Assembly (NCBI RefSeq): GCF_900403705.1
Contig: NZ_OUNR01000022.1
Location: 62,001 to 126,000, forward strand
Length of the DNA: 64,000 nucleotides
Reading direction: 5' to 3'
DNA from: Nitrospira lenta
GTDB taxonomy: Bacteria; Nitrospirota; Nitrospiria; Nitrospirales; Nitrospiraceae
Shown: one piece after another, positions 14,099 through 57,907 of the stretch
How positions within the stretch are numbered: position 1 is the first letter of the stretch
Layout: every line of letters begins with the position of its first letter
Program-made: the position numbers and the translations under genes
Notes under the pieces: model-generated
Seen by the model: the letters and a program-made list of their open reading frames with translations, nothing else
Told to the model about the DNA's origin: nothing
The model's database searches: none

Positions 14099-14518
14099 CT
14101 AGCGAAGCGGCTGTGCGGATGTGTCGGTTGCCGAAAGCGGCGGCGAAGGGTGTATTCCACGGATGACGCACTTACCTAACCGCGTGACCGCGATCGGTGA
14201 CAGTAAAGAGAACTCGACCCCGAATACAGAATCCTTTACCCAACGAACCGTGGCCCGATCGATAAACGTCGACACCCGCTGGTGCGGCAATCGCAGGCTG
14301 ATCGCAATCTCATCACCGGGAGCCAAGGCTGTCTCGCTTAGCATTCTGGCACCTGCGACTGAGAGATCGCACACCACGCCCAGACCGCCCCGATTGACCG
14401 TCGCCCATCTCTTCAGTCCAACCAAAGCATAGGAACAAGGGAATGGAGCTGAAACACGCATGCGCGGTGTGCGCCGCCGCGAGGAGGGCTCGTTTGTAGA
14501 GACACGGGAATTCGACAA
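14099..14518 (-). CDS. PilZ domain protein
   Basis: A 139 aa protein with the two c-di-GMP-binding PilZ motifs: an Arg-rich RRRTPRMRV near residues 14-22 and DLSVAGARM near 51-59. The domain fills most of the protein, with no other module. Such single-domain proteins act as c-di-GMP-responsive adaptors. It is the second of two tandem PilZ genes (12 nt apart, same strand), which diverge from the stator-like pair at 15161-17208. Confidence 0.85.
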   Translation of the reverse strand: MSNSRVSTNEPSSRRRTPRMRVSAPFPCSYALVGLKRWATVNRGGLGVVCDLSVAGARMLSETALAPGDEIAISLRLPHQRVSTFIDRATVRWVKDSVFGVEFSLLSPIAVTRLGKCVIRGIHPSPPLSATDTSAQPLR

Positions 14519-14530
14519 GGCAGACCTCGC

Positions 14531-14911
14531 TTATCTGATCCCTTTTGAAAACACCGTCATGTACCGTCGAAGTCGTCCATGGGAGGTACTCGACAACCGC
14601 TGAAAAGCCAGTCCGTAGATTTGATCTTTCGCCCAGCGAACCGTGGCCACAGCGATTTCTGCAGGTGCCGCTTGCCGCGGCAACCGAATCAGCAACGACA
14701 CCTGATCGCCCGGCTTGATCGGAGCTTCTGTGCTGACCCGCATCCCCCGCAATGAGAGATCGTACACGACGCCCGGACCGTGAACCGACTTTCCAAACCA
14801 ACGCTGCTCATCATGCCAGGCAAGCTCACAGGCAATGGGGGTGGGAATACGCACTCGAGGGTGCCGACGAAACTTGTTCAGCATCGAAGCGCGTGATGTG
14901 CTCGCCGACAT
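14531..14911 (-). CDS. PilZ domain protein
   Basis: A 126 aa single-domain PilZ protein with RRHPRVRIP near residues 15-23 and DLSLRGMRV near 51-59, the c-di-GMP contact motifs. It is clearly a paralogue of the next gene downstream. An in-frame ATG at codon 10 is an alternative start. Position: 250 nt upstream and divergent from the MotA/ZorA-like gene, with a perfect inverted repeat in the shared intergenic region. Confidence 0.85.
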   Translation of the reverse strand: MSASTSRASMLNKFRRHPRVRIPTPIACELAWHDEQRWFGKSVHGPGVVYDLSLRGMRVSTEAPIKPGDQVSLLIRLPRQAAPAEIAVATVRWAKDQIYGLAFQRLSSTSHGRLRRYMTVFSKGIR

Positions 14912-15050
14912 AATCGAAACCTCTCACCCGACTGTATCTCACTCGCTTCTCCCTACAAATACTTTTTTGAAAGTCACCATCCAACAAGTCCCTGCGATAC
15001 CATTTCCTGTGAATGCCATAGAACAGCGGACCCGAATGGACGCGAACCCG

Positions 15051-15081
15051 GCACATTGTTCCCCTTGAGGGAACAATGTGC
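15051..15081. repeat. Perfect 13-bp inverted repeat in a divergent intergenic region
   Basis: Arms GCACATTGTTCCC (15051-15063) and its exact complement (15069-15081) around the 5-nt spacer CTTGA. It lies between the divergent PilZ and stator-like genes where neither gene ends. That makes an operator or leader hairpin more likely than a terminator. Confidence 0.8.
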
Positions 15082-15160
15082 TTAGCCTGTCGCGCACCCA
15101 TCGATAATTACACGAATCGGCGGGCATCTCCGACACGCCACAGTGGCACGAAAGTTGGAC

Positions 15161-16450
15161 ATGATGTCGCCCATGGTCATCCAACATGCCATTCAACTGC
15201 TGACTCAGGACGTTGCCCCCTGGGGTGCGCTCTCCGCTCCCCTCATCAGCTGGTACGGCTCTGCGGGCCTGACGATATTTTTTCTCTGGCAGATCACTCG
15301 GCTGTATCAACTATCGACACAAACCGCGCAACCGTTTGCACGTGTGACGCGCTGCTTGCATACACTGGCCCAAGAGCGCCTGCAACTCGATCAGGACGGC
15401 TTGACGTTCCCCCCTCCGGGAGTCGTGAAAGGTAGGGCGCAAGACTCCCCTCCACCCTTAGACCGACGAGACGGGAAGGACTTTCAACTCATCAACGCGA
15501 CATTTCAGCGAGAACCCTGGCTATCCCCTTCCTGGAAGCAATATCGGAAGACGCTCGTGACGGAACAGGTTGCCTGGTATATCGAACCTCGCATATTTAG
15601 CTCCCGTTCCGCCCAGGAGCTCTTTTCACTTGAAACGATCTTTCGAGGAAAGCTGAACCTGGCATGGTATCAACAAGTGCCGTCTCTCCTGACAGGGATC
15701 GGCCTCCTGCTCACGTTTATCGCGCTATTGGTGGGACTCAGTAAACTCCACGCCGATGGTCACGGCATTGCCGGCATTCAGGGACTCATCAACGGTCTCG
15801 CCGGAAAATTTCTGACCTCGATCGTCGGGCTCGTCTGCGCAACGGCCTTTACCCTGATAGAAAAACCGCTCATGTTTCGCCTATTCTCAGCCCATCAGCA
15901 ATGCATCCACTTGATCGATGACCTATTTCCAAGAAAAACGCTTGAACAGATTCTTGAAGGCATGACGGGAACACTTCGCCGACCTTCTTCACTGGAACAG
16001 GGAGTAAAATATCCCCCCCCCATTCCCTATGCACAGCCGGCGGCTGATGCCCTCGTCCAGCCCTTGAAGGCCATGACAAAATCGGTGGATGCACTGACAC
16101 AAGAAATTCGCTCACATCTCCAGGCCGAGAACACACCACCGGCTACCTATCCGACCGACGCCATCGCCCAATCATTCGCTCCACTCATCCAGCAACTCAC
16201 ACTCGCATTGGCGAATATCCCTCACCGAGTGGAGCCGCCACCAGCTCAGCGCTTCCCGTCACCCCAAGAAGTCGGTCACCTGGTGGATGACTTGACCGCC
16301 AGAATCGCTCAGGCACCCCATGCCAGAACAGGGACGCCTCTTCGCCAACCCCAAGGATGGCTGCAGCGACTCCGCACTTCAACACACCTACTTGCGCCGC
16401 GTTCAATCAGCGCGCCTAGTAGAACTCATCAATCCCGCGGCCCACGATAA
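15161..16450 (+). CDS. MotA/TolQ/ExbB-type channel protein, ZorA-like
   Basis: A 429 aa inner-membrane protein. Hydrophobic segments lie near residues 25-45, 175-200 (PSLLTGIGLLLTFIALLVGL) and 220-245 (KFLTSIVGLVCATAFTLIEK). The last two fit the MotA/TolQ/ExbB pore helices. A cytoplasmic tail of about 170 residues, Pro-rich and polar, follows, which recalls ZorA of the Zorya anti-phage system rather than flagellar MotA, though it is shorter than typical ZorA tails. It is followed by an OmpA/MotB-type partner 41 nt downstream. ATG 15161 was chosen. An in-frame GTG at 15143 is possible. The family role would be an ion-driven stator. The load it drives is unknown here. Confidence 0.7.
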   Translation: MMSPMVIQHAIQLLTQDVAPWGALSAPLISWYGSAGLTIFFLWQITRLYQLSTQTAQPFARVTRCLHTLAQERLQLDQDGLTFPPPGVVKGRAQDSPPPLDRRDGKDFQLINATFQREPWLSPSWKQYRKTLVTEQVAWYIEPRIFSSRSAQELFSLETIFRGKLNLAWYQQVPSLLTGIGLLLTFIALLVGLSKLHADGHGIAGIQGLINGLAGKFLTSIVGLVCATAFTLIEKPLMFRLFSAHQQCIHLIDDLFPRKTLEQILEGMTGTLRRPSSLEQGVKYPPPIPYAQPAADALVQPLKAMTKSVDALTQEIRSHLQAENTPPATYPTDAIAQSFAPLIQQLTLALANIPHRVEPPPAQRFPSPQEVGHLVDDLTARIAQAPHARTGTPLRQPQGWLQRLRTSTHLLAPRSISAPSRTHQSRGPR

Positions 16451-16491
16451 GATGGCCCCTGCCGTCCTAACCCACTGAGAAGACATTCCAC

Positions 16492-17208
16492 ATGTATCAG
16501 AATAACCCCGGCTCCCATTCAACGATTTCCCACACCACGACCAACGGGCTCATGGACTTGATGACTTCTCTCGCCATTATTTTCGTCCTACTCCTTGCGG
16601 CATCACTCGCACCACAAGCAGCTCAGGAGAGTCCAACCGACGCACCAACGCCGCCGCCCCAGGCGACCGCCTCCGATCCTGCGACGCCGCTCGCAAGCAA
16701 CATTCAAACGTTACTCTACGAACACTTCGCACAATTCGGACTCTCCGTGGACAACGACCCGCAGGATCCACTGCTCATGCGAATCGTCATCCCCGAAGAC
16801 CTGCTCAACTTCGATTCCGGGAAGAGCACCTTGACTCCCCAGGCCGATCGATTCCTCACCGACATGATGCCCCGCTATGCGGTCCTTGTCTGCGGACCGC
16901 TTGAGTCACATATCGACTCAGTCGTGATCGAGGGCCATACTGATGATCGCGGCGACGACGCGATGAACTTGCGGTTGAGCCAGGAACGTTCCTTCCGCGT
17001 GATGACCAAAGGCCTCGAAGTCATCGACCGTGCGGAGCCAACCGCTTCACCGTGCTTCCAGCGGCTGACATCGGCGAGCGGCCGAGGCCGGCAAGATCTC
17101 ATTGCGCATCCTGCGACCGGAGTAGATCGGGAGAAGAGCCGACGCGTGATTTTCAAACTTCGCCTCCGGTCCGCGCCCACGCCACACACGCTCCCACACA
17201 CATCCTAA
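16492..17208 (+). CDS. MotB/OmpA-type stator partner, ZorB-like
   Basis: A 238 aa protein with one N-terminal membrane helix whose start carries an Asp at residue 22 (GLMDLMTSLAIIFVLLLAAS), the position of the ion-carrying Asp of MotB/ZorB/ExbD/TolR. A Pro-rich linker follows, then a C-terminal OmpA-like peptidoglycan-binding domain (LNFDSGKSTLTPQADRFL, VVIEGHTDDRGDDAMNLRLS, REKSRRVIFKL). Two Cys (YAVLVCGP and SPCFQRL) could form a disulfide. It should pair with the ZorA-like protein upstream. No flagellar genes and no zorC, zorD or zorE homologue are present in the window. Confidence 0.75.
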   Translation: MYQNNPGSHSTISHTTTNGLMDLMTSLAIIFVLLLAASLAPQAAQESPTDAPTPPPQATASDPATPLASNIQTLLYEHFAQFGLSVDNDPQDPLLMRIVIPEDLLNFDSGKSTLTPQADRFLTDMMPRYAVLVCGPLESHIDSVVIEGHTDDRGDDAMNLRLSQERSFRVMTKGLEVIDRAEPTASPCFQRLTSASGRGRQDLIAHPATGVDREKSRRVIFKLRLRSAPTPHTLPHTS

Positions 17209-17443
17209 TCGACCGAGATGCCGCTTTGACTGGGTCTCCCCATCGTGGTACGGTACATGTCGATCTCCGAGAGGCAGTTACATCGCTCTCCCTCACGCCG
17301 TACCCTATCAAGATGTCGGTTTGCGTGAGTGAGATAGGTGGCCCGCATAGAGTCGGCTGCGCGTCTATCCACAGCCGATGCCAGCCTATCTCACTGACAA
17401 GACGACCAAGGAGGACACTATCGCACGCGCAGGAAAAACAACG

Positions 17444-17608
17444 ATGGCGAAACGAGACCGTGAGAAATCCCTTCAAACGAAGCGGAAAGAAAAGGAAGAG
17501 AAACGTGCGCAGCGGAAAGGTGAAAAAGACGATCGCACGTCAATTCAGGCAGGAGAAGATCCGGATTTGGAAGGATTACAGTGGGGGCCGCAGCCGCCCT
17601 TGTATTAA
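17444..17608 (+). CDS. Small Lys/Glu-rich conserved hypothetical protein
   Basis: A 54 aa highly charged protein (MAKRDREKSLQTKRKEKEEK at the start) ending in a conserved-looking tail DLEGLQWGPQPP. It probably forms one helix. The ATG at 17444 has AGGA about 10 nt upstream. The longer frame from 17378 was rejected because its extra codons look unlike protein. I recall similar small proteins in other Nitrospira genomes but know no function. It ends just before a strong bidirectional terminator-like hairpin. Confidence 0.65.
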   Translation: MAKRDREKSLQTKRKEKEEKRAQRKGEKDDRTSIQAGEDPDLEGLQWGPQPPLY

Positions 17609-17651: not shown

Positions 17652-17990
17652 TTAGGCAGGACGGACAAACCGATCGTCGCCAAGTGCTCCCCGTAACCGC
17701 AAAGTCACCAGTCGACGGAACTCCACTTTCTGTTTAAGAATCAGCGCCAAGCCCTCCGCATCCACTAACACCAGCAGGTCATCCTCAACAACCAGCGTTC
17801 TCGCTTGATCCCCGAGATTGACGCGATACTGCGTGCGGCCGTCAGGATTCCGGCCGGCTCCCGTAACGAGTTCAGTAAGCCCATCAATGACACCCTCCTG
17901 ATTGTCCGTCCGCAACCGCACCTTGGTTCCATCAGGAATTCTGACCCACGGTGCGCTGGGCTTGACCGGGAGGCTTTGCGTCTCAGGCAT
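17652..17990 (-). CDS. Conserved hypothetical protein, paralogue of 22276-22617
   Basis: A 112 aa protein with the core WVRIPDGTKVRLRTDN, EGVIDGLTELV, RNPDGRTQYRVN and a DDLLVLVD stretch, probably a small beta-barrel (SH3/KOW-like) by its pattern, which is an inference. The paralogue at 22276 shares the same blocks in the same order. The ATG at 17990 has GGAAGGGA about 6 nt upstream, while the frame to 18032 has none. It is transcribed in the direction away from the helicase start, 58 nt after the helicase stop, and may share its transcript. Confidence 0.75.
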   Translation of the reverse strand: MPETQSLPVKPSAPWVRIPDGTKVRLRTDNQEGVIDGLTELVTGAGRNPDGRTQYRVNLGDQARTLVVEDDLLVLVDAEGLALILKQKVEFRRLVTLRLRGALGDDRFVRPA

Positions 17991-18048
17991 GACGTTCCCT
18001 TCCAATAGTAGATTGATCAACGAGCGATCCATTCACACACTCTCTGCG

Positions 18049-19610: not shown

Positions 19611-20522
19611 ATGATGAATGCTGACTCTATCGGGAAACAACCGGTGACGACGGATATACCTGCACTACGCCTGGCCCGCCGCTACCATGTCGGCTGGACC
19701 GTCGTCCTCTTTCTCTCCATCGTGGTGGGAGCTCTCCTCGCGATCCCAACCTATGCCTATTTCTACGATTACTCCTGGCTGGACTGGACGCTGTTCGGCA
19801 TCCTCTACCTCATCAGCGGCCTTGGAATCACCGTCGGCTACCATCGCCTCATGTCGCACCGCAGTTTCGATTGCCCCAACTGGGTGAAAGGCGCACTGCT
19901 CATCGCAGGCGCATGGGCGTTACAAAACAGTGCCATCAAGTGGACCGCAGACCACCTTCGCCACCACGCCCAATGCGATCAGGAAGGCGATCCCTACAAC
20001 GCAAAGCTGGGGTTCTGGCATAGCCATTGTGGATGGCTTTTCGCAGAACGGAAATATGATGACGTGCAGTATGCCTCCCGTGTCGCGCAGGACCCAGTAG
20101 CCATCTGGCAACATAAATACTATGCACTCATCGTACTGGGCGGCCTGGCACTCCCATTTGCGATCGGCTTCATAGCAGACGGATGGGTCGGCGGCATCGG
20201 CTGTTTTCTGCTCGCCGGCGTAGGCAGAACCTTTGCTGTCTTGAACTCCACCTTTTGCATCAATTCCATTTGTCACATCTGGGGGAGTCAACCCCACGGA
20301 ACAAAGGATTCCAGCCGCGACAGCTGGTTCGTCTCGTTGATTACGTTCGGAGAGGGATACCACAACTACCATCACATGTATCCAAGTGACTATCGCAACG
20401 GGCCTAGATGGTATGACTTCGACCCCTCAAAATGGCTTATTTATGGGCTATCCATGCTCGGACTCGCCAGCGGGCTCCGAACGGCATCGGCGGCTGGAAA
20501 CAGCCCATCACGGCAGTCCTAG
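19611..20522 (+). CDS. Acyl-CoA/lipid desaturase (delta-9 type), copy 1
   Basis: A 303 aa di-iron membrane desaturase that puts double bonds into fatty acyl chains. The three histidine boxes are HRLMSHRSF, DHLRHHAQCD and GYHNYHHMYPSDYRNGPRW. Hydrophobic pairs lie near residues 28-75 and 165-205. It shares long identical stretches with the second copy at 23601-24458 (LGITVGYHRL, DWTLFG). Two adjacent ATG codons (19611 and 19614) are candidate starts with only a weak AGG before them. Confidence 0.93.
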   Translation: MMNADSIGKQPVTTDIPALRLARRYHVGWTVVLFLSIVVGALLAIPTYAYFYDYSWLDWTLFGILYLISGLGITVGYHRLMSHRSFDCPNWVKGALLIAGAWALQNSAIKWTADHLRHHAQCDQEGDPYNAKLGFWHSHCGWLFAERKYDDVQYASRVAQDPVAIWQHKYYALIVLGGLALPFAIGFIADGWVGGIGCFLLAGVGRTFAVLNSTFCINSICHIWGSQPHGTKDSSRDSWFVSLITFGEGYHNYHHMYPSDYRNGPRWYDFDPSKWLIYGLSMLGLASGLRTASAAGNSPSRQS

Positions 20523-22063: not shown

Positions 22064-22275
22064 GGAACCAAATGAAAGTTCGCTATCCCGGCAGCAACGT
22101 GACAAACTCCCTACAGTAGAAGCTTCCGATCTGTTTCGTCAGCGCCCCCACTCATTCCGTCCCACGGAATCGGTTCGGCAGTCATTATCGTGCTTCCGTC
22201 CGGAACTCTGAGTATCACCCATTCATCGGCGGACTCGTGGTCGCCACAGTCCGCGTCCGCAAAGGAGACCCCTGT

Positions 22276-22617
22276 ATGACACAGAAACCCACCCCGCAGG
22301 CTCGCCCCCTCGCATCAGATTGGGTCCGCATCCCTGATGGCACCAGGGTCAAACACCGCCTCGAAGGACACGAAGGAGTGATTGACGGGTTAACTGAGAT
22401 GGTTTCCGGCGGAATGCGGAACCCGGACGGGAGAACCCAGTACCGGATAAATATCGGAACCTCGACTCGACAACTCGTCACTCAAGACGATCTGAATATT
22501 CTCCTCGATCATGAAAACCTGGTCATCATGGTCCGCCAGAAAGAACCGTATCGACGTTCTGTCACGGAGCGCTTGCACAGCATCCTGAGCGCAGACCGAT
22601 TCGTCAAATCCGCGTAG
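22276..22617 (+). CDS. Conserved hypothetical protein, paralogue of 17652-17990
   Basis: A 113 aa protein sharing WVRIPDGT, EGVIDGLTE, RNPDGRTQYR and a DDLNILLD segment with the gene at 17652. The start ATG has AAAGGAGACCCCTGT before it. The long frame from 22237 was rejected. It is probably a small beta-rich domain. Function unknown. Its place next to the RRM protein and second desaturase, while the other copy is next to the helicase and first desaturase, suggests the pair arose with duplication of a local module. Confidence 0.75.
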   Translation: MTQKPTPQARPLASDWVRIPDGTRVKHRLEGHEGVIDGLTEMVSGGMRNPDGRTQYRINIGTSTRQLVTQDDLNILLDHENLVIMVRQKEPYRRSVTERLHSILSADRFVKSA

Positions 22618-23535: not shown

Positions 23536-23544
23536 ATCAGTCCA

Positions 23545-23580
23545 TGCAAGGAGGAGCGCGTCATTGCACTCCTCCTTGCA
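23545..23580 (+). terminator. Perfect 12-bp hairpin after the RRM gene
   Basis: Arms TGCAAGGAGGAG (23545-23556) and its complement (23569-23580) around a 12-nt loop, 9 nt after the stop. There is no T-run. It sequesters an AGGAGG-like sequence, so the desaturase start was placed downstream at 23601. Confidence 0.6.
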
Positions 23581-23600
23581 TCCACACCTGGACACCCCGC

Positions 23601-24458
23601 ATGCCCATTCCCCCGTCACCAATCACTCAACCGGCCATCCCTAACTATCTGACGACGACGCTCTTCGCTCTTGTCACGGCTGTCGCAATCATCGGCGTGC
23701 CGGCCTTTGGCTATTTCTACGGATACAGCTGGGTCGATTGGACATTGTTCGGCGTGCTCTATGTGGTTACCGGGCTGGGAATCACGGTGGGTTACCATCG
23801 ACTGCTCTCACACCGCAGCTTTGAATGCCGGAATTGGGTGAAAGCCGTGCTCTTAGTAGCCGGCGGATGGGCCCTGGAAAACTCTGCCCTGAAGTGGGCG
23901 GCCGACCATATCCGTCACCATGCCGCCTGTGACCAGGATGCTGACCCCTACAATGCAACCAGGGGATTCTGGTATAGCCACTGCGGATGGTTGTTCTACA
24001 AAGACACGAATGCCAACGACAAATACGCGTCCCGCTTACGCCAAGACTCGGTTGTCATGTGGCAACATCGTCACTACTGGATGATCGTGCTCTCAGGCCT
24101 GGGACTCACGTTTGCAGTGGGTTTTCTCTACAATGGCTGGATGGGCGGGCTGGGATGCTTTCTCCTCGCGGGCGTCGGCCGCGCCTTTGCCGTGCTCAAC
24201 TCAACCTTTTGCATCAATTCAGTCTGTCACCTCTGGGGACGCCAGCCGCACAGTCAGGAAGATTCCAGTCGCGATAGTTGGCTGGTGTCGTTACTGACGT
24301 TCGGCGAGGGTTATCACAACTACCACCACACGCATCAAAACGATTACCGCAACGGCCCCCGATGGTACAACTTCGATCCGTCAAAGTGGCTGATCTTCAC
24401 ATTGTCAAAATTAGGCCTTGCCTCCTCGCTCAGGACCGCAGCCCCTTCCGCGCGTTAG
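23601..24458 (+). CDS. Acyl-CoA/lipid desaturase (delta-9 type), copy 2
   Basis: A 285 aa di-iron desaturase with histidine boxes HRLLSHRSF, DHIRHHAACD and GYHNYHHTHQNDYRNGPRW, and membrane pairs near residues 20-60 and 145-185. It is a close paralogue of the copy at 19611-20522. ATG 23601 was chosen because the longer frame begins inside the terminator-like hairpin. It probably raises membrane unsaturation, for example at low temperature. A GCCGTC-ACAACA-GACGGC hairpin overlaps its stop codon. Confidence 0.92.
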   Translation: MPIPPSPITQPAIPNYLTTTLFALVTAVAIIGVPAFGYFYGYSWVDWTLFGVLYVVTGLGITVGYHRLLSHRSFECRNWVKAVLLVAGGWALENSALKWAADHIRHHAACDQDADPYNATRGFWYSHCGWLFYKDTNANDKYASRLRQDSVVMWQHRHYWMIVLSGLGLTFAVGFLYNGWMGGLGCFLLAGVGRAFAVLNSTFCINSVCHLWGRQPHSQEDSSRDSWLVSLLTFGEGYHNYHHTHQNDYRNGPRWYNFDPSKWLIFTLSKLGLASSLRTAAPSAR

Positions 24459-51792: not shown

Positions 51793-53373
51793 TTAATCAC
51801 CACTGCTAGTCATTCCCTTGATCTGCCTTTCCAGCGACTCAAGGCTCCAGTCGCCCGGGACCTGGCTGGGCGGATATTCCTTCAGGGACAAGAGGAACTT
51901 GCTGGCAATTCCCTGCAGGGGGATCAGGATGAAGGAGCGATCCAGTACCCAATCGTGATAGGTGTTGGAGTTCCCGTAGGCTTTCTCGAAAGGATCGCGC
52001 CGCAAGCTGTAGAGCAGCGGAATACGCAGGTGAACGAACGGCTCACGCCAGACATCGAGCTGGTGCGCGCGGTTCTCCAGATAGATGGCTTTCCAGTCGC
52101 CTACGCGGATAGCCATCACGGCACCGTCGTCGCCCACATAGATAAAATCCGTGCGCGGCGATTTATCCACCTTGCCACTAAGGTAGTCGAGCTGGTTATA
52201 GCCGTCGATGTGGCTCCTGTAGGTGCGGCCGTTGAGCTCCACCCCACCCTTGAGCAGCTTTTCCTTGATGTCTGGCGCGCCGGCGATGGCGGCAAAGGTC
52301 GGCAGCCAGTCCTCATGCGCGATGATTCCGTTGAGCGTCGTGCCGGCCGGGAAATGGCCGGGCCATTTGATGAAGGTCGGGACACGGAACGCGCCTTCCC
52401 AGTTCGAATTCTTCTCGCCGTGAAAAGGCGTGGTGCCGGCATCGGGCCAGCTGTTGTAGTGGGGGCCATTGTCGGTCGAATACTGAACGATAGTATCGTT
52501 TGCGAGGCCCAGTTCATCGATCAGCGTGAGCAGTTCGCCCACGTTTAGGTCATGGCTGACCATGCCATCACTGTATTCGTCCTGACCGGAGAGGCCGATC
52601 TGCTCAGGCTTCACATGGGTGCGGTAGTGCATATGCGTCGCATTCCACCAACAGAAGAAGGGCTTGCCCTCTTTTGTCTGGCGAATGATAAACTCCTTGG
52701 CGGCGGCCAGGGTTTCATCGTCGATCGTCTCCATGTGCTTCTTGGTCAGGGGGCCGAGATTCTCGACAGTCTGGCCGCCCTTGCCGTCGGCCTTGGACTT
52801 GATGATACCGCGCGGGCCGAATTGTTCGCGGAAGGTTTTGCCGTTAGGCAGCTTCAGATTATTCGGGTAGTCGCGATTCTCGGGTTCCTCCTCCGCGTTG
52901 AGGTGATAGAGAGAGCCAAAGAACTCGTCGAAGCCGTGCATGGTGGGCAGGTGCTCATCGCGGTCGCCCTGGTGATTCTTGCCAAACTGGCCGGTAGCAT
53001 ACCCCTGGCTTTTCAGAACGGTGGCCATCGTGACGTCGGTCTTCTGCCAGCCTTGCTTGGCGCCAGGCATGCCGACTTTGGTCATGCCAGAACGAACCGG
53101 AACGGTGCCGCCGATGAAGGCGGCGCGGCCCGCGGTGCAAGACTGCTGGCCGTAGTAATCGGTGAAGGCAACGCCTTCCTTGGCGATGCGATCGATGTTC
53201 GGCGTCTTGTAGCCCATCATGCCACGGCTGTTGTGGCTGATGTTCCACGTGCCGATATCGTCACCCCAAATAACGAGGATATTGGGCTTCTTCTCGGCTG
53301 CGGCCGCAGGGAGCGTGCCGGCGATCAACGCGAGCGTCCCCAGGAGGACGGACCATCGAACTACACGAATCAT
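51793..53373 (-). CDS. Arylsulfatase (type I, formylglycine-dependent)
   Basis: A 526 aa secreted sulfatase. The signal peptide ends at about residue 26 (LPAAAA). Metal-binding NILVIWGDDIG is at 31-41, and the modification site CTAGR is at Cys 79, where FGE or anSME must convert Cys to formylglycine. Further metal ligands are in STDNGPHYNSWPD. It hydrolyses sulfate esters; the substrate is unknown. Start 53373 is fixed by TAGGAGG. The neighbouring FGE gene at 56693 could activate it. Note CxAxR instead of the commoner CxPxR. Confidence 0.92.
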   Translation of the reverse strand: MIRVVRWSVLLGTLALIAGTLPAAAAEKKPNILVIWGDDIGTWNISHNSRGMMGYKTPNIDRIAKEGVAFTDYYGQQSCTAGRAAFIGGTVPVRSGMTKVGMPGAKQGWQKTDVTMATVLKSQGYATGQFGKNHQGDRDEHLPTMHGFDEFFGSLYHLNAEEEPENRDYPNNLKLPNGKTFREQFGPRGIIKSKADGKGGQTVENLGPLTKKHMETIDDETLAAAKEFIIRQTKEGKPFFCWWNATHMHYRTHVKPEQIGLSGQDEYSDGMVSHDLNVGELLTLIDELGLANDTIVQYSTDNGPHYNSWPDAGTTPFHGEKNSNWEGAFRVPTFIKWPGHFPAGTTLNGIIAHEDWLPTFAAIAGAPDIKEKLLKGGVELNGRTYRSHIDGYNQLDYLSGKVDKSPRTDFIYVGDDGAVMAIRVGDWKAIYLENRAHQLDVWREPFVHLRIPLLYSLRRDPFEKAYGNSNTYHDWVLDRSFILIPLQGIASKFLLSLKEYPPSQVPGDWSLESLERQIKGMTSSGD

Positions 53374-53472
53374 AACTGCACCTCCTACTGTGTTGGCGTG
53401 CACCTTTCATGGCACAACGCGCATTTACCCGTCGGGGAGCAGCAATTTAAAGCCCCCTGCAATTTATTCGGC

Positions 53473-56692: not shown

Positions 56693-57907
56693 TCAGCGCG
56701 CGTCGCGCACCAGGCGAAATCCCACATGGTTCGTCCCGGTATCCGGTTCACCCTTGCCCCGGCCACCCGCGATGTAGCGCGCGCAATATTGATCGGTGCA
56801 GAGGAACGAGCCGCCTTTGTGAACTTTCTTTTTCACACCTGGTTCACTCGGATCGAAACTCTCCTCCGGCCCGTGCGGATTGCGTGCAAGCGGTCCCTGG
56901 GAAGCAAGCGCCTGATAGTAGTCATGGCGATACCAGTCGCTGGTCCATTCCCAAACGTTACCGGCCATGTCATAGAGTCCATAGCCGTTGGGCGGGAACG
57001 AGCCGACCGGTGCGGCAGCCGCGTGACCGTCTTCATTCGTATTCTTGTTCGGGAAATGCCCCTGGAAGGTGTTCGCCATGAACTGGCCGCCCGGGTTCAA
57101 CTCATCGCCCCAGGCATAGGGTTTCCGTTCAAGCCCCCCCCGCTGCGCGAATTCGAACTCGGCTTCCGTCGGCACGCGCTTGCCCGCCCATTTCGCATAG
57201 GCCTGCACATCTTCATATGCGATGTGCACGACGGGATAGTTCCCGCGATCCGTGATCGTGCTCTTCGGTCCCTCCGGCTGCCTCCAGTTGGCGTCCTTCA
57301 CGTAGCTCCACCACTGAAAGTGATCGTTCAGTTTCACGGCATGATCGGGCGGCGAGAAGACGACCGACCCGGCCACGAGATTTTCAGGTAACGCGCCGGG
57401 AAAATCTTCCGCGCGCGGCGCCTGTTCGGCGAGCGTCATATACTTAGTGGCCTTCACAAATTGCGCGAACTGGTTGTTCGTAACTTCGGTTTTGTCCATC
57501 CAGAATCCATGCACTGAGACCCGATGCCACGGCTGGGCATCAGGAAACTCCTCCGCACCCATCCAAAAGTCTCCGCCTGGAATCCAGACCATCCCCTCCG
57601 GCGCAGAGCCTGGAGGCGGCTGAACGGTTGTGCCTGGAGTGTCGTTGGCGGGCTGAACCATTCGGGTATTCGTCACGACCGGTTGCGCAGTGCCAGCCGC
57701 AATGCCACCGCCGGCCTTCGCAGCCGAGATACCCATGTCGCAGGTCATGCCGGGCGTCGAAGCCGGCGCCGCCGATGGACGAGTGCCGCCGGAAACAAAC
57801 CACCATCCCGCTAGTCCCGCGCACACACAGACCACTAACGCCGCGCCGCCACGCACCCAAGCCCTGTGCATCAATGGAGGCATACGAGTTCGCTCTGCTT
57901 CTTTCAT
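56693..57907 (-). CDS. Formylglycine-generating enzyme family protein, membrane-anchored
   Basis: A 404 aa protein with an N-terminal membrane helix (about residues 20-40), a low-complexity linker and a complete FGE-sulfatase domain (MVWIPGGDFWMGAEEF, TEVTNNQFAQFV, GYGLYDMAGNVWEWTSDWY). The active-site pair is present as GGSFLCTDQYCARY (Cys 370 and 375), which in true FGEs binds copper and oxidises the sulfatase Cys to formylglycine with O2. Many relatives lack these Cys, so this one is likely a real FGE. Target: plausibly the sulfatase at 51793. It would act outside the cytoplasmic membrane. Confidence 0.88.
   Translation of the reverse strand: MKEAERTRMPPLMHRAWVRGGAALVVCVCAGLAGWWFVSGGTRPSAAPASTPGMTCDMGISAAKAGGGIAAGTAQPVVTNTRMVQPANDTPGTTVQPPPGSAPEGMVWIPGGDFWMGAEEFPDAQPWHRVSVHGFWMDKTEVTNNQFAQFVKATKYMTLAEQAPRAEDFPGALPENLVAGSVVFSPPDHAVKLNDHFQWWSYVKDANWRQPEGPKSTITDRGNYPVVHIAYEDVQAYAKWAGKRVPTEAEFEFAQRGGLERKPYAWGDELNPGGQFMANTFQGHFPNKNTNEDGHAAAAPVGSFPPNGYGLYDMAGNVWEWTSDWYRHDYYQALASQGPLARNPHGPEESFDPSEPGVKKKVHKGGSFLCTDQYCARYIAGGRGKGEPDTGTNHVGFRLVRDAR

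What the first reader, a model, noticed from the sequence alone, without database searches (positions are those of the whole stretch)
15161..17208. Orphan ZorAB/MotAB-like ion-driven stator pair
A TolQ/MotA-type channel protein with a long cytoplasmic tail is followed by a MotB-type protein with a membrane Asp (residue 22) and an OmpA peptidoglycan-binding domain. Flagellar, Tol/Exb and known Zorya effector genes (zorC, zorD, zorE) are all missing nearby. It could be a Zorya-like defence core with an unknown effector, or a stator for another envelope machine. If new, the small neighbours (17444, 17652) are effector candidates.
Basis: partly seen in the sequence, partly recalled or inferred. 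Interest (0 to 1): 0.7.

Follow-up and report, generated by a model that had tools for sequence, protein, structure and literature searches.

The report
Stand-alone Zorya-type motor in Nitrospira
Two neighbouring genes encode the ion-driven rotary motor of a known anti-virus system, but here it stands alone as an ordinary inherited gene pair in most nitrite-oxidising Nitrospira, almost always in species with flagella, which suggests it now does a motility- or cell-wall-linked job rather than virus defence.

Summary
In detail: A (15161-16450) and B (16492-17208) are a real stator pair, and no effector gene is nearby. Sequence, AlphaFold/Foldseek and a tree all place the pair beside ZorAB, not MotAB, TolQR or ExbBD, but below every curated ZorA/ZorB cut-off. 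It is not a patchy defence operon. An A gene of this kind occurs in about 145 of 236 Nitrospirales genomes (and one Rokubacteria MAG), essentially single-copy, in several different housekeeping neighbourhoods. No third gene is shared: the next commonest neighbour is in 39 of 115 loci. Ion-path residues, the membrane Asp and the peptidoglycan-binding motif are invariant, while the long ZorA tail (418-513 residues after TM3) is cut to 119-243 and is weakly constrained. True Zorya loci co-exist with it in a few genomes.

Two new clues. (1) A 15-bp promoter-like element, YGGCAYRRAANTTGA, precedes A in 152 of 164 loci; it has sigma-54 -24/-12 spacing but never C at -12. (2) A co-occurs with the flagellar gene fliG (p=2e-17 within the family, 3e-8 in the other families; not phylogeny-corrected).

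Best reading: a ZorAB-derived motor exapted from defence into a core, motility- or envelope-linked stator. The suggested small neighbours are not conserved partners. Function is untested.

The parts
15144..15158 (+). Conserved promoter-like element TGGCACGAAAGTTGG (family consensus YGGCAYRRAANTTGA); sigma-54-like -24/-12 spacing, but G instead of C at -12
   Evidence: Aligned upstream regions of 164 loci: GGC and TTG invariant in the 100 distinct instances scoring >=11/15. Core regex found in 152/164 loci and 94/104 non-redundant loci versus 0.08% in shuffles. Genome-wide occurrence otherwise near control level
15161..16450 (+). Gene A: ZorA-like channel subunit, 3 TM helices, short C-terminal tail (429 aa; the start may be the ATG at 15173)
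   Evidence: NCBIfam antiphage_ZorA_2 59.9 bits (cut-off 100) and PADLOC ZorA1 1.9e-21; PDB profile 8vvn 4e-15; Foldseek 8qyh 1.1e-8; tree; orthologues
16492..17208 (+). Gene B: ZorB/MotB-like subunit with TM Asp D22 and OmpA peptidoglycan-binding domain (238 aa)
   Evidence: Pfam OmpA; PADLOC ZorB1 2.8e-35; PDB profile 8vvi 2e-11; Foldseek 8vvi 1.7e-9; invariant D22, T150-D151-D152, R166, S216-R217-R218, C134 and C188 in 25 sequences
14912..15160 (+). Intergenic region between the divergent PilZ genes and gene A, holding the element
   Evidence: ORF list and Pfam PilZ; sequence

Best explanation
The pair is a stand-alone ZorAB-type 5:2 ion-driven rotary motor, derived from or sharing an immediate ancestor with Zorya ZorAB. 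It has dropped the long cytoplasmic tail and the zorC/D/E effectors and become a near-core gene pair of flagellated Nitrospirales with its own conserved promoter element. Proposed mechanism: B2 is anchored to peptidoglycan by the OmpA domain; ions pass D22 of B inside the A5 ring (T178/T185/S220); A5 turns or rocks. Output goes through the clade-specific, invariant cytoplasmic TM1-TM2 surface (R129, E135, W139, P143) rather than through the tail, to a partner that is not encoded next to it and that matters chiefly in cells with flagella: an envelope or motility machine, possibly the flagellar motor itself. Shown here: homology, residue conservation, distribution, absence of linked effectors, co-occurrence with fliG, the conserved upstream element. 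Inferred: ion flow, 5:2 stoichiometry, rotation, the output surface, the motility or envelope role, transcription from the element.
For: Closest solved relatives by sequence profile are ZorA and ZorB only; by fold ZorA 1e-8, then TolQ 6e-3 and MotA 0.4. T185 and S220 align with E. coli ZorA T147 and S184 (positions counted from the alignment); T178, T185, S220 and E234 are identical in 41/41 orphans and 10/10 long ZorA. Single-copy in 123/175 family genomes and 149/236 in the order (a few of these hits are long ZorA); phylum-wide hits outside the order are 639-706-aa frames. 115 orphan loci: B follows in 107, next neighbour family in 39, neighbours ksgA, pdxA, bipA, queD, sucCD and the like. 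ZorC-type EH_Signature in 5/175 genomes, all carrying long-ZorA loci, none in this genome. Absent from plasmid and phage collections. Tail 119-243 vs 418-513 residues, dN/dS tail 0.22-0.27 vs core 0.09-0.12. fliG co-occurrence 115/8/16/36, p=2e-17, replicated outside the family 23/1/9/28, p=3e-8. Upstream element. ZorAB alone is reported not sufficient for defence (PMC8565338).
Against: No expression or phenotype data. The fliG association is not corrected for phylogeny or genome reduction, and two 99%-complete genomes (G080, G157) have the pair but no FliG, while 25 fliG-positive genomes lack the pair. The element lacks the -12 C of canonical sigma-54 promoters, which is present before fliL in this same genome. 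Direction of descent (from Zorya, or ancestral to it) rests on a distant outgroup root; some deep nodes are weak (support 25/38 to 78/78).
Confidence: 0.55

Rival explanations
1. Zorya-like defence core: the motor senses envelope perturbation by phage and signals to an effector encoded elsewhere in the genome, or acts alone (depolarisation).
For: Nearest relatives are defence motors. Its sister in the tree (L045/L187) sits in loci with EH_Signature (ZorC-type) genes and, in L045, a helicase-like third gene. The peptidoglycan-binding and ion residues used by Zorya are kept.
Against: Near-core, single-copy, in housekeeping contexts and not on plasmids or phages, unlike defence genes. No linked effector; EH_Signature absent from 170/175 genomes. 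Tail halved although a structured ZorA tail is needed for defence (PMC11890865); ZorAB alone is reported insufficient (PMC8565338). Co-exists with true Zorya in G099, G124 and G159.
Confidence: 0.15
2. Alternative flagellar stator: the AB complex docks at the flagellar motor (FliG) beside MotAB and adds torque or a different ion or load regime.
For: Strong co-occurrence with fliG in two separate sets of genomes, including the one f2 genome with a confident FliG, which is also the only f2 carrier. Sigma-54-like element while fliL of the same genome has a canonical sigma-54 site. PilZ or GGDEF genes lie near the pair in several clades.
Against: ZorA-type 3-TM architecture without a recognisable MotA torque domain; the tree separates it from MotA. 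Two near-complete genomes keep it without FliG, and own MotAB is present.
Confidence: 0.25
3. Envelope maintenance motor (TolQR/ExbBD analogue, e.g. peptidoglycan or outer-membrane force transduction), linked to flagella only because both are lost in reduced genomes.
For: B carries a complete peptidoglycan-binding domain; stand-alone pair in all contexts; upstream lytic transglycosylase (MltC-like) in the window clade. Sigma-54 regulons centre on the cell exterior (PMC3162934).
Against: No force-transducer (TonB/TolA-like) gene nearby; TolQ and ExbB-like genes already present. The MltC neighbour is clade-specific.
Confidence: 0.3

Closest known systems
Zorya ZorAB (type I/II, PDB 8QYD, 8VVN, 8VVI)
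   Same: Three-TM A subunit, B with TM Asp and OmpA domain, ion-path Thr/Ser, adjacent gene order A-B; best profile, fold and tree match
   Different: Tail 119-243 instead of 418-513 residues after TM3 in the Nitrospirota long ZorA (some type II ZorA, e.g. S. kujiense at 378 aa, are also short); no zorC/D/E; core-gene distribution; own promoter element; clade-specific W139/P143 and H197/G200
Zorya type III (ZorA, ZorB, ZorF DUF3348, ZorG DUF2894)
   Same: ZorAB core without C/D/E
   Different: No DUF3348 or DUF2894 hit among the scanned neighbours
Flagellar MotAB/PomAB
   Same: PG-anchored 5:2 stator logic; co-occurrence with flagella
   Different: Different A-subunit architecture; separate MotA in the same genome; poor fold match (E 0.4)
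TolQR / ExbBD
   Same: Three-TM A subunit, weak fold match to TolQ (E 6e-3)
   Different: B has an OmpA peptidoglycan-binding domain; no TolA/TonB partner nearby; TolQ and ExbB-like genes present separately

Membership tests
Zorya anti-phage defence system | ZorA and ZorB homologues adjacent | tested here: met
   the window's own matches are below NCBIfam curated cut-offs (59.9 vs 100 bits)
Zorya anti-phage defence system | Linked effector genes zorC/zorD, zorE, or zorF/zorG | tested here: not met
   No such gene among scanned neighbours; no EH_Signature (ZorC) in the own genome
Zorya anti-phage defence system | Long structured cytoplasmic ZorA tail | tested here: not met
   119-243 residues after TM3 Ser vs 418-513 in co-resident Zorya; low-confidence helices only
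Zorya anti-phage defence system | Phage protection | not testable with these tools
   Needs a plaque assay
Flagellar MotAB stator | MotA-type torque domain / placement in the MotA clade | tested here: not met
   No PF01618 match in A; Foldseek MotA E 0.4; separate from own MotA in the tree
Flagellar MotAB stator | Occurs with a flagellum | tested here: inconclusive
   Strong statistical co-occurrence with exceptions
TolQR/ExbBD | Periplasmic partner TolA/TonB linked; short B without OmpA domain | tested here: not met
   B has OmpA; no TolA/TonB family among scanned neighbours
Sigma-54 promoter (the element) | TGGCACG-N4-TTGCW with GC at -12 | tested here: not met
   GG at -24 and spacing conserved; C at -12 in 0 of 100 distinct instances
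Sigma-54 promoter (the element) | Dependence on RpoN and an enhancer-binding protein | not testable with these tools
   Needs transcription assays; the -12 C is not strictly conserved at bypass promoters (PMC4551910)

The most novel reading that the evidence does not exclude
A third kind of stator: a ZorAB-type motor that escaped phage defence and became part of the sigma-54/flagellar regulon, powering or loading the flagellar machine (or another motility-linked envelope rotor) across Nitrospirales.
Probability: 0.22. Interest if true: 0.85.

Novelty: new variant of a known kind. Interest (0 to 1): 0.6.

Why it matters
ZorAB is known only as the sensor-motor of a defence system, while the evolutionary links between defence motors and cellular motors (flagella, Ton, Tol, gliding) are open. 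A single-copy, vertically inherited ZorAB clade without effectors, with a conserved promoter element and a statistical tie to flagella, is a natural case of exaptation between immunity and cell machinery. It can be tested directly: what does a ZorAB motor drive when no nuclease is attached? It also warns that ZorAB hits in Nitrospira should not be counted as Zorya.

Tried and rejected
(1) Small ORFs 17378-17608 and 17652-18032 as effectors: no Pfam, NCBIfam or significant PADLOC match and conserved only in the window clade; the second is on the opposite strand next to a DEAD-box helicase, and a similar protein lies at 22237-22617. (2) MotA_ExbB Pfam membership: no match for A. (3) Mobile or plasmid origin: no hits. 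(4) Sigma-70 promoter scan: nothing above shuffles. (5) A regulon of the upstream element: other occurrences in 16 genomes are only mildly above a reversed-pattern control, and inspected second sites were mostly inside genes; one lies before a putative lytic transglycosylase in G011, left open. (6) Rokubacteria hit as a mis-binned Nitrospira contig: GC 71% versus 57% argues against it.

Full report
Observation. Gene A (15161-16450, 429 aa) and gene B (16492-17208, 238 aa) are real, adjacent and co-oriented, with 41 bp between them; in some relatives the two genes overlap by 4 bp. A has three hydrophobic helices and B one with D22 plus an OmpA domain. The window belongs to a 3.76-Mb genome whose relatives are Nitrospira.

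Family. A has no significant Pfam match; its best models are ZorA (NCBIfam antiphage_ZorA_2 59.9 bits, cut-off 100; PADLOC 1.9e-21) and B's best is ZorB (PADLOC 2.8e-35). All 27 aligned A proteins match the same ZorA models. Profiles retrieve only ZorA and ZorB from the PDB above E 0.001 (A) or 1e-6 (B). The AlphaFold models (A pLDDT 67, B 78) match ZorA 8qyh at 1.1e-8 and ZorB 8vvi at 1.7e-9, with TolQ (6e-3) and MotA (0.4) far behind for A. In a tree of the core region, the orphans (all but the single-contig f2 sequence L189) form one group (SH-aLRT/UFBoot 91/87) next to long ZorA of L045/L187, whose loci carry EH_Signature genes (and in L045 a helicase-like third gene), and apart from the genome's own MotA, TolQ and ExbB-like proteins. 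Rooted on those, the short tail looks derived; deep support is moderate.

Residues. Across 41 orphans and 10 long ZorA, T178, T185, S220 and E234 are identical; T185 and S220 correspond to E. coli ZorA T147 and S184 by position in the alignment (their role in the ion path is from my knowledge of the Zorya literature; the polar ring is described in PMC11890865). B keeps D22 and the OmpA motif residues invariant. Orphan-specific near-invariants are E135, W139 and P143 in the cytoplasmic TM1-TM2 domain and H197, G200, G208 around the TM2-TM3 loop. The tail has almost no conserved columns, is 119-243 residues after the TM3 Ser against 418-513 in long ZorA, and evolves under weaker constraint (dN/dS 0.22-0.27 vs 0.09-0.12). 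C134 and C188 of B are invariant and recur in the ZorB of L045; a disulfide is inferred.

Distribution and context. 123 of 175 family genomes match, nearly all with a single short-tail copy; 149 of 236 order genomes, a handful of these being long ZorA or partial frames. In a phylum-wide draw the only hits outside the order are 639-706-aa frames. One Rokubacteria MAG (71% GC) carries the A gene. No plasmid or phage record matches. In 115 orphan loci B follows in 107 and the next family appears in 39; contexts differ by clade and consist of ordinary genes (ksgA, pdxA, GGDEF regulator, bipA, queD, ahpC-like, sucCD, radical SAM, PAS kinase). ZorC-type EH_Signature occurs in 5 of 175 genomes, each with long-ZorA loci; G099, G124 and G159 have both orphan pair and Zorya. 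This argues against defence, where ZorAB is reported insufficient on its own (PMC8565338).

Upstream element. Aligning upstream regions revealed YGGCAYRRAANTTGA(G), typically 40-110 bp before A and, in the window clade, immediately before it (15144-15158). A core pattern is in 152/164 loci (94/104 non-redundant) versus 0.08% of shuffles. GGC and TTG are invariant at sigma-54 -24/-12 spacing, but the -12 C never occurs; fliL of this genome has a canonical TTGC site (gene named by eye from its sequence). Loss of that C is reported at promoters that escape tight activator control (PMC4551910). I therefore call it sigma-54-like, not sigma-54. Genome-wide it is close to unique to this gene pair.

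Flagellum link. Presence of A against fliG: 115 both, 8 A only, 16 fliG only, 36 neither in the family (Fisher p 2e-17; p 5e-5 within the genus, 5e-3 within g17), and 23/1/9/28 in the other families of the order (p 3e-8). The only f2 genome with A is also the only one with a confident FliG. Shared ancestry and genome reduction are not corrected for. G080 and G157 (both 99% complete) keep A without FliG, so the link is not absolute.

Mechanism. Shown: a conserved ZorAB-type motor core, no linked effector, core-like inheritance, a conserved upstream element, association with flagella. Inferred: 5:2 assembly, ion-driven motion, peptidoglycan anchoring, output through the TM1-TM2 cytoplasmic surface, and a motility- or envelope-linked role. 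A dedicated flagellar stator and a Tol-like envelope motor remain open; defence is the least likely of the three. No tool here can show function.

Noticed in passing
window 14099-14911 (-); also L044, L034, and cluster 2 (GGDEF) in the main g1 context: Two PilZ-domain genes lie directly upstream of gene A, divergently transcribed; PilZ or GGDEF response-regulator genes also lie near the pair in several unrelated contexts. Possible c-di-GMP link; Nitrospira is rich in such genes (own knowledge), so not tested for enrichment.
   Followed up: partly
L249 (G011:C4:70431-70445): A second copy of the upstream element (TGGCATGGAAGTTGA) stands before a putative lytic transglycosylase gene; could be a shared regulon or chance.
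   Followed up: no
window 17652-18032 (-) and 22237-22617 (+): Two similar 126-aa proteins (WVRIPDGTxVKxR...EGVIDGLTE...NPDGRTQYR); the first has no family match, the second was not scanned.
   Followed up: no
window 19611-20522 and 23544-24458 (+): Two similar ~300-aa proteins that look like fatty-acid desaturases (by eye), with small RNA-binding-like proteins near them.
   Followed up: no
window 51796-53403 (-) and 56696-57907 (-): A sulfatase and an FGE-type sulfatase-modifying protein close together; another FGE-like gene sits right after the AB pair in the N. defluvii clade (cluster 18).
   Followed up: no
L045, L187 (G131, G099): Zorya type-I-like loci in Nitrospira whose ZorA and ZorB are the closest long-tail relatives of the orphan pair; useful for dating the switch.
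   Followed up: partly
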